Part shown: one piece after another, positions 26,828 to 30,253 of the stretch
Layout of the letters: every line of letters begins with the position of its first letter
Position numbering within the stretch: the first letter of the stretch is position 1
Source: Serinus canaria
Taxonomy: Eukaryota > Chordata > Aves > Passeriformes > Fringillidae
Reading direction: 5' to 3'
Assembly (NCBI RefSeq): GCF_022539315.1
Contig: NC_066338.1
Location: 2,046,001 to 2,110,000 of the forward strand
DNA: 64,000 nt
Position numbers and translations under genes: made by a program
Notes under the pieces: model-generated
The model's input: only the letters and a program-made list of their open reading frames with translations
What the model was told of the DNA's origin: nothing
Databases searched by the model: none

Positions 26828-27632
26828 GTTACCAAAAGCACAAAATTTCAAGTACATGATAGTGTATGTCTGTACCTTTTCAGGATGGCCAGAAGCTTAC
26901 CCCTGTAGGACAAATCAGGCTAAGGAAGTGGTTAGGACACTGCTTAAAGAAATCATTCCCAGGTTCGGGGTACCTCTAGGGTTGTCGTCGGATAGAGGTC
27001 CACATTTTATAGCTGGGATTGTGCAAACAGTAGCTAGGATGTTGGACATATCTTGGGACTTGCATACACCTTGGCGACCTCAATCAAGTGGTCAGGTTGA
27101 AAGAATGAATCAAACACTGAAAGGGCAAATCAAGAAAATTTGCCAGGAAGCTAAAATGCAATGGCCGCAAGCATTACCGTTAGCTTTGTTGCGAATCAGG
27201 ATAAAGCCCAGGGAGAGGTTGGGGGTAAGTCCTTATGAGATTCTATATGGGAAACCTTATCATGCTACCGTACTAAAGGGAGATCTACATGTACAAGGGG
27301 ACCAAGTGATATTTAATTATGTAATGTCACTAAACAGAACTCTCAACAGCCTACGGGGAGCCCTGCAGTGGAACCGACCCCTACCACTGGAGAATCCAGT
27401 CCATGACATCCAACCTGGTGACCGAGTGTATGTGAAAAATTGGTTCACGGATCCACTGAAGGAAACATGGGATGGCCCCTACCAAGTGATCCTGACGACC
27501 TACACAGCAATAAAGGTGGCGGGAATCGACACCTGGATCCACTACACTCGAGTCAAGAAAATTCCAACACAATGGGAGACTCAGATGGTCTCCCCGACGC
27601 GAATGATATTTCGCGCAAAGCCGCATTCTTAA
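26760..27632 (+). pseudogene. pol: Class I pol, second open segment: integrase core and C-terminal domain
   Basis: Continues integrase one phase away from the preceding segment. The catalytic triad is present: D at 26817 (YWQVDFSEL), D at 26991 (SSDRGPHF) and E at 27099 (GQVERMNQ), with 35 residues between the last two. The C-terminal domain has the gammaretroviral GPY signature WDGPYQVILTT and WIHYTRVKK. It ends in TAA at 27630. The first ATG in this phase is at 26856, but that lies inside the core and is not a natural start. The last 61 bp overlap the start of env in another frame, as in gammaretroviruses. Confidence 0.88.
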
Positions 27633-30253
27633 TCATTCTGTTACTGGTGATGATGAAATTGATACCTACTCAAGGTTTTGTGGTTGTCACTGTTTCAGAA
27701 CCTGTTGTTGGAATCATGGAAGGGATGGATGTGAATTTGACCTGTGCTATTGCCAATGACCAGAAAGCTGAAGCCCGAGATTTACGAGTATTCTGGAAAC
27801 AAGGAGCTGGGTACCCCAAGGCAAGTTTTACTACTATTTGGGATAGGGATGCACAAAAAGGGAATACCACACTACAATTGAAGCAAGTAACTGGAGAAGA
27901 TATGGAGGTTTATATGTGTATAGTGCAAATTAGACGTAGTTTTGACTATAAGAAAATTAAATTGAGGGTGGTATCTTGGAGATTACGGGAAGGAACTATT
28001 TCTCAGGAATCAGTGTCAGTCAGGCCAACATCCGCTATTCAAGACATGTGGGACGGTCCCCCGTTAAAGCTTAATTGCCCATTCACTCTAACAGAGGCAT
28101 GCAAACAAGAAGTGAAAGTTAAGTGGTGGAAAGAACAACAACAAATGTGGGAACGAATTGACCAGGGAGTGAGTTGGTGGAAATTATGGGACAAAGGAAT
28201 TGGGTGGCTAAATATCTCAGATCCTAAACAAGGCATAGACGAAGGGCGGTATCTGTGTCTAGTTACATGTGGAATAGATGCAGACTATGGCATTCGATCA
28301 TCAATAGCTAGGGCACATTTGGGGGAAAGGATCAAGGCAACACATGGAATTTTTCGAGCAGTGCAAGGCATGGCAGTTATCTTAGTCTGTAAGGTAGAGA
28401 AAGATGTACAGTTTATCGAATATGGATGGTGGTTTGGGGGAAACAATATTCGGGACAAAGAAGGAAAATATCGCAAGGAGAAACGATCAGATCAAACTAT
28501 AGTCCTTATAATTAGGGACGTACAGCCGGAGGACGAGGGATATTATTGGTGCTGGATTAGCAAAGACTCCTGGTGGGGACATTCAAGAACGATAGTCTCA
28601 CTAACTCGAGGGAAACCGAGAAGAGTAAGAGAAATTAATATTACCACTCAAAATGAGCAAAAACAAGAGAACCTGATAGTGGGACTGATCAGAGATTTTG
28701 GTACAGTACAAAATGTCTCACAAATTACGGCATGCCTGCCACTCCCCCAGGCCGCTGGAGAGCCTATCCAATGGGGAGTGGTTCCGGTCCCAATGCCCCC
28801 AACAATACAAGAAAACATTACGGTCATGTGTCAGGTAGAAAACGTAGAGAAGGAGGTAGTAGAAATTAAGGAAGGTTATTCCCCTTTGTGGAAATATTCG
28901 TCAATCTGGGATTGTCGGGAAAAAGGAGGCAGATACGAACCAAAACCTGGACTGTATGGAGGATTAGGAAATTATGGTTGGTGTTTTGAGAAACAAGAAC
29001 AACAAATTAAGAAAAAACAATTATCTCGAGAAATACGGTGTCAAAATATGACACAAGAACAACCCTTATGGGACCACTGGGAAGCTATATGGGGTCCAAG
29101 TTTACTGGAACACTATAGTTATATCGGGCCTGTTGATTGGTGTGTACAGTGGACAGGAAGTAAAAACCAATCACATGCAGAAGTATCAGAGATAAATACC
29201 TCTACTAGGGAGAAGGTGATAGCGAAAGAAAACTGGAATTGTACAGAAGTTTATACATGCGATACTCCAGGGGACCAAATTAGCCTAGTGCCAGTAAGGG
29301 TCCTTTTGAAATGGGGATGTGAATGTAGGAAATACAATCACACAATACCCGGCAAACCCCTTATGAACGGATTTTATGGAAGGGTCTCCTGTAGGACGAC
29401 TACACTCAGAAGTCCGGGAAATTTAGTATGGGTAATGGGACATGGACAATGGACTACTCATCTCCCTTTGGACGGACCAGTGACACAAGTAACTTTAGGG
29501 GTGCCAACGTTATGCCCTTTGTGGAAACAGTCTAAGTTAAAAGCATCAGGGACTAGGAAAAAGAGAGAAATTGATGATTTGAATTTGTTAGGAGATGAAG
29601 ACCAATGGCATGAACCAGACAGCGGAGTGAAATTTGGATGGGCACTAGAATCATTATTTGCACCAGTAGCCACATATAGAAACAGAGAAATGTTGTTTAA
29701 GTTACTGGGACAAACAGAGAGATTGGCATTAGCAACTAGGAGAGGATTCAAAGATTTGAACCTACAATTGCAGGCTACTTCTCGTATGACACTCCAAAAT
29801 AGAATGGCTCTAGACATGCTGCTATTGAAAGAACATGGAGTTTGTGGGTATTTAAATAAAAGAATTGATCACTGCTGCATCCATATCCCAAATGTAACGG
29901 TAGAAGTAGAAAAAGACATCTCTCAACTAGAAATAGTCGAATCTGGAACAAAAGAAATCGAAAAGGAGGCCCAGCACAATTGGATAGGAGCCTTGTTAGA
30001 TTCAATGGGGCTTCAGGTTTCTGGTTGGGTATCGTCAATGTTGCAATATGTGTTGCTGTTTATAATTGTACTAATAGTTGCTTGGATAGCATATAGATGT
30101 GTTCTAGGAATAATAACCAAAGAAACAAGACGAACCCGAAGATTGGTGAAAGCAATAGGAAGAAACCACGGATTTGGAGTTCCCCCGCCCAAATACGAAG
30201 AGGTGGCCCTTCCTAGAAGAACTGAAGCTAGAAGAACTGAAGCTGAAGGTTGA
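27572..30253 (+). CDS. env: Env glycoprotein with three N-terminal Ig-like domains (893 aa)
   Basis: Class I membrane fusion glycoprotein with an enlarged surface subunit. I chose the ATG at 27572 because it precedes a hydrophobic signal peptide (AAFLIILLLVMM) closely and overlaps pol as expected; the frame is open further upstream, to 27440. Numbering from that ATG, three Ig-like domains lie at about 36-134, 146-251 and 254-346. SU continues with many cysteines and N-glycosylation sequons. Furin-type RKKR is at 662-665, the SU/TM boundary. TM has no hydrophobic N-terminus directly after cleavage, an immunosuppressive-domain-like segment starting at LQNR (741), C758-x9-C768-C769, a membrane helix at about 824-847 and a tail with PPKYEEV. 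Gammaretroviral Envs are usually about 600-700 residues; the excess corresponds to the Ig region. Expected in the secretory pathway and virion membrane. The frame is intact. Confidence 0.9.
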   Translation: MGDSDGLPDANDISRKAAFLIILLLVMMKLIPTQGFVVVTVSEPVVGIMEGMDVNLTCAIANDQKAEARDLRVFWKQGAGYPKASFTTIWDRDAQKGNTTLQLKQVTGEDMEVYMCIVQIRRSFDYKKIKLRVVSWRLREGTISQESVSVRPTSAIQDMWDGPPLKLNCPFTLTEACKQEVKVKWWKEQQQMWERIDQGVSWWKLWDKGIGWLNISDPKQGIDEGRYLCLVTCGIDADYGIRSSIARAHLGERIKATHGIFRAVQGMAVILVCKVEKDVQFIEYGWWFGGNNIRDKEGKYRKEKRSDQTIVLIIRDVQPEDEGYYWCWISKDSWWGHSRTIVSLTRGKPRRVREINITTQNEQKQENLIVGLIRDFGTVQNVSQITACLPLPQAAGEPIQWGVVPVPMPPTIQENITVMCQVENVEKEVVEIKEGYSPLWKYSSIWDCREKGGRYEPKPGLYGGLGNYGWCFEKQEQQIKKKQLSREIRCQNMTQEQPLWDHWEAIWGPSLLEHYSYIGPVDWCVQWTGSKNQSHAEVSEINTSTREKVIAKENWNCTEVYTCDTPGDQISLVPVRVLLKWGCECRKYNHTIPGKPLMNGFYGRVSCRTTTLRSPGNLVWVMGHGQWTTHLPLDGPVTQVTLGVPTLCPLWKQSKLKASGTRKKREIDDLNLLGDEDQWHEPDSGVKFGWALESLFAPVATYRNREMLFKLLGQTERLALATRRGFKDLNLQLQATSRMTLQNRMALDMLLLKEHGVCGYLNKRIDHCCIHIPNVTVEVEKDISQLEIVESGTKEIEKEAQHNWIGALLDSMGLQVSGWVSSMLQYVLLFIIVLIVAWIAYRCVLGIITKETRRTRRLVKAIGRNHGFGVPPPKYEEVALPRRTEARRTEAEG
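27677..28609 (+). other. Triple immunoglobulin-like domain block in Env SU
   Basis: Each domain shows the Ig core of cysteine, tryptophan and a D-x-[G/E]-x-Y-x-C end. Domain 1: C58, W75, D110-Y114-C116, with E at the usual G position. Domain 2: C169, W185, D223-G225-Y227-C229, plus extra cysteines 177 and 233. Domain 3: C273, W286, D321-G323-Y325-C327 in the context EDEGYYWCWIS. Cysteine spacing is 58, 60 and 54 residues, nearer to C- or I-type sets than classical V sets, although the last motif recalls CD300/pIgR-like receptors. Homology to a specific host receptor cannot be settled without a search. Confidence 0.8.

What the first reader, a model, noticed from the sequence alone, without database searches (positions are those of the whole stretch)
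27572..28609. Retroviral Env carrying three immunoglobulin-like domains
Seen: three successive C...W...D-x-[G/E]-x-Y-x-C modules between the signal peptide and the rest of SU, two with a perfect terminal signature, in one uninterrupted 893-codon env. Known: gammaretroviral receptor-binding domains have an Ig-like fold but not this sequence signature, and their Envs are usually about 600-700 residues. Inference: either a host receptor-like gene was captured into env, or a lineage-specific SU expanded by domain duplication. It could act in receptor binding or as a decoy of host Ig receptors. I am not aware of a described Env of this kind, but cannot exclude one.
Basis: partly seen in the sequence, partly recalled or inferred. 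Interest (0 to 1): 0.92.

Follow-up and report, generated by a model that had tools for sequence, protein, structure and literature searches.

The report
Retroviral envelope with poxvirus-shared Ig domains
A young endogenous retrovirus, in a genome that looks like a songbird's, carries three antibody-like domains at the front of its envelope protein, and the same three-domain block is found as a separate gene in bird poxviruses, which suggests that the two kinds of virus have exchanged it.

Summary
The Env ORF (27572-30253; open from an ATG at 27467) has three true Ig domains between signal peptide and SU. Pfam scores are far above cutoff, and AlphaFold gives three confident beta-sandwiches (pLDDT 85.6).

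The Env is not a one-off. Bird relatives carry three, two, one or no Ig domains, and this genome holds many copies with, and some without, the block.

The surprise lies elsewhere. The whole block, leader included, is 30-47% identical to free-standing three-Ig proteins of avipoxviruses. Rooted trees nest the poxvirus proteins inside the Env family, beside suboscine-bird Envs. An Env clade excluding them is rejected with SU-TM data (p-AU 0.0105-0.0315) but not with Ig data alone (p 0.123). No cellular donor gene was found. A basic, furin-like motif sits between Ig block and SU in most relatives.

Best reading: a selected, possibly cleavable Ig module of a gamma-like Env, which probably gave rise to avipox Ig genes. 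Decoy function and cleavage are inferred. Ten paper searches found no description of such an Env.

The parts
21469..21919 (+). 5' LTR, 451 bp, begins TGTTGC and ends GCAACA
   Evidence: 98.9% identical to the 3' LTR, 5 differences in 451; CCCC flanks the provirus on both sides
22403..24103 (+). gag, 566 codons, ends in TGA
   Evidence: Gag_p30 130.1 bits; same frame as pol
24116..26827 (+). pro-pol, first part, same frame as gag
   Evidence: RVP, RVT_1, RNase_H, Integrase_H2C2
26856..27632 (+). rest of integrase in another frame: pol is broken by a frame change near 26.8 kb in this copy
   Evidence: rve, MLVIN_C 58.4 bits
27467..30253 (+). env, 928 codons from the upstream ATG (893 from 27572)
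27572..27679 (+). Env leader with signal-peptide-like helix (residues 1-36)
   Evidence: AF2 helix 11-30; leader comparison with avipox proteins
27683..27973 (+). Ig1 (residues 38-134)
   Evidence: I-set 45-133; strands 37-134
27998..28315 (+). Ig2 (residues 143-248), with extra cysteines C177 and C233 besides C169 and C229 (pairing inferred)
28331..28606 (+). Ig3 (residues 254-345)
   Evidence: ig/Ig_3 263-328
28619..28630 (+). RRVR (350-353), minimal furin-like motif in the linker between Ig block and SU core; stretch 347-401 has pLDDT under 50
28658..29566 (+). SU core (residues 363-665), ends in RKKR
29567..30253 (+). TM (666-893) with stop
   Evidence: TLV_coat 18.9 bits, under its cutoff of 22.5; PDB TM matches
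29843..29878 (+). CX9CC cysteine motif of TM (758-769)
30297..30747 (+). 3' LTR

Best explanation
This is the envelope gene of a young class-I-like endogenous retrovirus. Its Env is a three-part protein: an N-terminal module of three Ig domains, an SU core, and a TM. Shown: the module is real, lies between signal peptide and SU, was kept under purifying selection while the lineage diverged, and is homologous along its whole length to free-standing three-Ig proteins of avipoxviruses. Probable: an Env of this family, close to those now seen in suboscine birds, was the source of the avipox genes. Inferred: the basic motif after Ig3 is cut by furin, as at the SU/TM junction, so that the module is shed or held loosely on the spike; it binds a bird immune protein or surface receptor as a decoy, which is what the avipox protein would do as a separate gene. 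The SU core, which ratite and some songbird relatives have alone, does the basic work of entry.
For: Ig fold. Placement: Ig-less relatives begin with signal peptide, a short segment, usually a basic motif, then SU. Variable domain number across 31 Env hits. Selection: window against five older copies in the same genome, silent sites saturated in 5 of 5 pairs for Ig1 and Ig2 and in 2 of 5 for Ig3 (the other 3 have dS 2.2-3.2), with dN 0.37-0.76; four young copies together show 21 silent and 9 replacement differences from the window. Avipox homology: Finch, Crowpox, Shearwaterpox, Cheloniid, Fowlpox, Magpiepox; full-length fold match to SWPV1-183, E 3.9e-38, TM-score 0.74/0.80, next hit E 5.6e-15; leader similarity reached by 0 of 2000 shuffles for Pipra and for Manacus Env against 5 of 7 avipox leaders each. 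Direction: 7 avipox rows form one clade (99/98), nested beside Pipra, Manacus and Myiozetetes (98/95, next nodes 94/100 and 88/87); Env-only clade rejected at p-AU 0.0144, 0.0315 and 0.0105. Cleavage: RxxR in 20 of 26 linkers, 8.8 expected after shuffling, 4.8 from windows elsewhere in the proteins; linker disordered in the model.
Against: With Ig columns alone the Env-only clade is not rejected (p 0.123), and avipox rows fill under 40% of the joint matrix. The clade test was named after the tree was seen. In the reduced tree P0016 moves to the base of the Ig-bearing group, so the exact neighbour of the avipox clade is not fixed. Leader similarity is uneven over the 9 Env leaders tested: those of P0016 and Prinia are mostly not above shuffles, and the Crowpox leader is most like the Catharus-type Env while several others are most like Manacus, which would fit two transfers better than one. 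Among the older copies themselves the Ig1 dN/dS is over 1 in 5 of 10 pairs, on small counts. Rows share ancestry, so 20 of 26 is not 26 independent trials; RxxR is a minimal furin site, the window's own copy has no R-x-[KR]-R there, and 2 of the 26 (lgnP0005, Apteryx) have neither RxxR nor [RK]x[RK]R. No ligand, no cleavage product and no expression was shown. Some bird proteins are automatic gene models, so some losses of Ig domains may be annotation errors.
Confidence: 0.55

Rival explanations
1. The Ig module is the receptor-binding domain: it stays attached to SU and chooses the cell receptor, with different Ig numbers reflecting different receptors.
For: It occupies the N-terminal end of SU, where gamma-type Envs have their receptor-binding domain; Ig domains are less conserved (36-52% identity to the older copies) than TM (64-76%); the window linker has only a minimal basic motif.
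Against: Relatives without the block keep an SU core and TM in one open frame (P0022, P0023, P0027, P0029), so entry need not depend on it; avipoxviruses use it as a free protein; the linker motif is commoner than expected.
Confidence: 0.3
2. Avipoxvirus to retrovirus: the three-Ig gene is an avipox gene that was taken up by the ancestor of these Envs.
For: Large DNA viruses often hold host-derived Ig genes (general knowledge); Ig-only data do not exclude a separate Env clade; leader and block form one unit in both.
Against: Env-only clade rejected in three tests with SU-TM data; an Ig1-type domain is already present in the parrot Env P0019 (41.1 bits to an Ig1 profile built without it).
Confidence: 0.17
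3. Both viruses took the block independently from one bird gene.
For: Ig1 is most like B7-family V domains (PD-L2, PD-L1, CD276) and Ig3 like I-set domains in a profile search of solved structures, so the ultimate source is likely cellular.
Against: No clear cellular protein among 12 hits of the profile search; no donor in this genome (best non-proviral match E 0.37); avipox rows nest in the Env tree.
Confidence: 0.1
4. Ordinary annotation or assembly artefact: an Ig gene lies by chance beside a provirus.
For: None beyond the oddity of the combination.
Against: One uninterrupted frame; five full-length copies in the genome, the window's own included, on three contigs, without stops; same architecture in other birds.
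Confidence: 0.01

Closest known systems
Avipoxvirus Ig-like / V-type Ig proteins (SWPV2-ORF155 = CNPV166 group; SWPV1-183, listed as nearest to CNPV081; Crowpox CRPV-108; a Fowlpox V-type Ig protein)
   Same: Same three domains in the same order; 30-47% identity to six Envs compared; similar leader to some Envs
   Different: Free-standing, end soon after Ig3, no SU, no TM
Crocodilian CrocERV31 with captured nectin3 (PMC4299795, passages read)
   Same: A retrovirus-borne protein with three Ig-like domains
   Different: There a recognisable host nectin3 (about 76% identity) replaces env; here the block is fused in frame to a complete Env and no host gene is recognisable
Gamma-type Env (review PMC9967133, passages read)
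   Same: SU/TM with a basic cleavage site and a CXnCC motif in TM; weak TLV_coat match
   Different: No CXXC in SU (0 of 21), CX9CC instead of the usual CX6CC, extra Ig module
Ig-less bird relatives (P0022, P0023, P0027, P0029; L013-L015 in this genome)
   Same: Homologous SU core and TM; basic motif before SU in the songbird and emu forms, not in the kiwi form
   Different: No Ig domain
Foamy virus Env with furin-cut leader peptide (recalled, not looked up)
   Same: A third, N-terminal product ahead of SU and TM
   Different: No Ig domains; unrelated leader

Membership tests
Immunoglobulin superfamily domains | Ig profile match above curated cutoff | tested here: met
   Five Pfam Ig families above cutoff
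Immunoglobulin superfamily domains | Beta-sandwich fold for each module | tested here: met
Gamma-type Env | CXXC motif in SU | tested here: not met
   0 of 21 SU-TM sequences
Gamma-type Env | CX6CC in TM | tested here: not met
   CX9CC in 16 of 21; the other 5 have no such match, 4 of them being cut short
Gamma-type Env | TLV_coat profile | tested here: inconclusive
   Window 18.9 bits, under the cutoff of 22.5; 7 of 8 Env relatives scanned lie above it, P0016 does not
Gamma-type Env | SU/TM basic cleavage site | tested here: met
   RKKR at 662-665
Class I (gammaretrovirus-like) endogenous retrovirus | Gag p30, MLV-like integrase C-terminus, gag and pol in one frame split by a stop | tested here: met
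Avipox three-Ig protein family | Homology over all three domains | tested here: met
Avipox three-Ig protein family | Free-standing protein ending after Ig3 | tested here: not met
   Here it runs on into SU and TM
Captured host receptor gene (as in CrocERV31 nectin3) | Recognisable cellular donor | tested here: inconclusive
   None; word-based search, one bird genome; nectin itself was not compared
Furin-released decoy | Cleavage between Ig3 and SU | not testable with these tools
   Motif only
Furin-released decoy | Binding to a host immune protein | not testable with these tools
   none

The most novel reading that the evidence does not exclude
A retroviral envelope evolved a furin-released three-Ig decoy, and a bird retrovirus of this family handed that decoy to an ancestral avipoxvirus, founding a family of poxvirus Ig proteins: a gene transfer from an RNA-derived virus to a large DNA virus in which part of the entry machinery became an immune-evasion gene.
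Probability: 0.33. Interest if true: 0.93.

Novelty: new variant of a known kind. Interest (0 to 1): 0.82.

Why it matters
Retroviral SU proteins are usually thought of as one receptor-binding unit on a fusion machine. Here a whole family of bird retroviruses adds a dispensable Ig module ahead of SU, and the same module is a gene of poxviruses that infect birds. It gives a concrete case of gene exchange between retroviruses and poxviruses, offers an origin for avipox genes annotated only as 'Ig-like' or 'V-type Ig', and makes a question testable: whether an Env can carry its own soluble immune decoy.

Tried and rejected
A single donor receptor family: pIgR led the first structure-sequence search, but the Env profile later ranked titin, CEA and B7-family chains above it, so none is named. 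Tail of the Finch poxvirus protein P0038 as a remnant of SU: 0.02 to 0.32 of shuffles reach the score, so dropped. Internal duplication: Ig1-Ig2 and Ig1-Ig3 are alike at hhalign probability 92-94, Ig2-Ig3 at 14.5 (that script failed after these comparisons, and its last part was done); this does not show recent duplication. The Ig2 model may hold Ig1 copies, so its overlaps with Ig1 were ignored. dN/dS against the older copies could not be put as a number for most Ig comparisons, because silent sites are saturated. IMG/VR scans with P0038 and A3 found no relative, and tblastn against phages found none. The Foldseek 'pdb' library was never searched by itself (not accepted); the VIA-align second look was used. 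A published tie between such Envs and avipox genes was sought in ten searches and not found; subscription journals and bioRxiv are not held. Two avipox genome papers searched for 'retrovir' hold it 0 times (PMC4229897, PMC13339807, passages); passages of PMC9445014 and PMC10536682 added nothing on Ig-bearing Envs.
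Full report
What is there. The window holds a provirus with two 451-bp LTRs (21469-21919 and 30297-30747) that differ at 5 positions, begin with TG, end in CA, and are flanked by CCCC on both sides. Gag and pol share a frame, split by one TGA; pol is broken in this copy by a frame change inside integrase near 26.8 kb. Gag_p30 and MLVIN_C matches make it gammaretrovirus-like. It sits inside a 30-bp satellite array.

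The family. A search with SU-TM returned 31 proteins, the window's own (P0004) among them; the 26 that bear a name are all from birds. By domain models built here (architecture read from that table), 6 of 31 have Ig1-Ig2-Ig3 (three of them cut within Ig1), 4 have two (one with a partial Ig2), 7 have one (one of these a mixed Ig1/Ig3 match), 2 have a remnant, 4 have none with an N-terminus of their own, and 8 show none but lack the N-terminus or are fused to pol. The parrot Env P0019 carries an Ig1-type domain: 41.1 bits to an Ig1 profile built without it, against 22.9 for Ig2 and 10.4 for Ig3. The forms without Ig start with signal peptide, a short segment, usually a basic motif, and SU, so the block was added ahead of a complete SU.

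Copies in this genome. A search with the Env gave 57 matches, 51 of 631 candidates being scored. Five rows, the window included, cover residues 1-893 at 100% (rounded) without stops. An older subfamily at about 45-51% identity has the block (L009-L011, L016, L017); L012, at 77-87%, lacks residues 95-330, that is most of the block; L013-L015 (about 38%) align only from residue 344 or 357. A search with the Ig block gave 53 matches at E<=10, all 52 candidates being scored. Of the 46 at E<=1e-5, 45 lie in or directly beside an env copy, and by the extra regions read; the remaining one (C27:6404677) lies 3.3 kb from an env piece and was not read. Of the 7 weaker ones, 2 lie in proviral places and 5 elsewhere, at E 0.37 or worse; of these five I read two stretches, and one (L042) holds, judged by eye, a lone I-set-like domain.

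Selection. Between the window Env and five older copies, silent sites are saturated in all 5 pairs for Ig1 and Ig2 and in 2 of 5 for Ig3, while dN is 0.37-0.76; in the other 3 Ig3 pairs the ratio is 0.12-0.18. Among the older copies themselves, which have decayed since insertion, Ig1 ratios exceed 1 in 5 of 10 pairs on few changes. Between the window and four young full-length copies (L002-L005) there are 21 silent and 9 replacement differences; differences are shared among copies, so these are not 30 events. L006 (11 silent, 25 replacement, 20 of them in TM) was left out of that sum because its match stops short at residue 877, and L007 because it does not align without gaps. I read this as a block kept as a working part while the virus spread.

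The avipox link. The Ig block alone hit two Finch poxvirus proteins. A profile of seven blocks, two of them from Finch poxvirus, hit 12 proteins: 7 from named avipoxviruses (two Finch, Crowpox, Shearwaterpox, Cheloniid, Fowlpox, Magpiepox), one unnamed protein (P0041) that falls among them in the tree, and 4 bird-type ones, two of them with SU (P0025, P0037) and two (P0036, P0046) with only leader and Ig parts, taken here as Env fragments. No clear cellular receptor was among them. Identity over the block is 30-47% for the 42 avipox-Env pairs listed. The AF2 model finds SWPV1-183 of Shearwaterpox virus at E 3.9e-38 over 325 columns, the next viral hit being at E 5.6e-15. The similarity goes on into the leader: for Pipra and for Manacus Env none of 2000 shuffles reached the score against 5 of 7 avipox leaders; for P0016 and Prinia most comparisons were not clearly above shuffles. 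The avipox proteins with an Ig3 end soon after it. The Shearwaterpox paper (passages of its gene table) lists SWPV2-155/CNPV166 and CNPV081 as 'Ig-like domain protein' and SWPV1-183 as 54% identical to CNPV081; Finch poxvirus has two of the proteins, so there are at least two avipox loci.

Direction. In an Ig-only tree of 14 rows the 7 avipox rows (Magpiepox, which lacks most of Ig3, left out) form one clade (99/98). In a tree of Ig and SU-TM columns of 30 rows, rooted on Ig-less Envs, they nest beside the suboscine Envs Pipra, Manacus and Myiozetetes (98/95; next nodes 94/100 and 88/87). Holding the 19 Ig-bearing Envs together without avipox is rejected: p-AU 0.0144, 0.0105 under a simpler model, and 0.0315 for a reduced set of 17 rows. 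I named this test after seeing the tree, which makes the p values optimistic. With Ig columns alone, rooted on the parrot Ig1, the place is the same but the alternative is not rejected (p 0.123). I read this as a probable transfer from Env to avipox, about two chances in three.

How it may work. In 20 of 26 Envs an RxxR motif lies within 45 residues before the SU core; shuffling each stretch gives 8.8 and windows of the same size in the rest of each protein give 4.8. Four of the six misses have a related [RK]x[RK]R motif. This suggests a second furin cut that would separate the Ig block from SU; it is inference. Fowlpox virus is reported to encode an interferon-gamma-binding protein, said there to have no significant homology to known proteins (PMC5041017, passage), and CNPV032 is annotated as an Ig-like putative IFN-gamma-binding protein; whether that protein is related to the three-Ig proteins was not tested. 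A soluble decoy is therefore a reasonable guess for both viruses, not a result.

What is known. The crocodilian ERV with nectin3 in place of env is the nearest precedent (PMC4299795, passages). The gamma-type Env review (passages) gives the features tested above: none of 21 SU-TM sequences has CXXC and TM has CX9CC, so I call this Env gamma-like. Ten full-text searches found no paper on such Envs or on their tie to avipox genes.

Verdict. Anatomy and avipox homology are firm, direction probable, cleavage and decoy function open.

Noticed in passing
window 13280-17961: Remains of a second, different retroelement: an RT/RNase H frame (15003-16520) and an integrase frame (16828-17961), with a 500-aa frame before them.
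   Followed up: partly
window 18700-20783 and 30747-49884: A 30-bp satellite array of about 70 and 639 copies, on either side of the provirus.
   Followed up: partly
window 720-1219 and 50680-51179: Two runs of 500 N, probably assembly gaps.
   Followed up: no
L013-L015 and further rows on contig C31: Many Env copies of about 40% identity that align only behind the Ig block, most of them on contig C31; C31 and C27 are rich in env copies.
   Followed up: partly
L038 (C16:61500-68500): A divergent old provirus with all three Ig domains at about 30-50% identity beside pol at about 80%, perhaps an env recombinant.
   Followed up: partly
P0010 (Geothlypis): A single Ig domain that matches Ig1 and Ig3 models over the same stretch, as if Ig1 and Ig3 had been fused by a deletion.
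   Followed up: no
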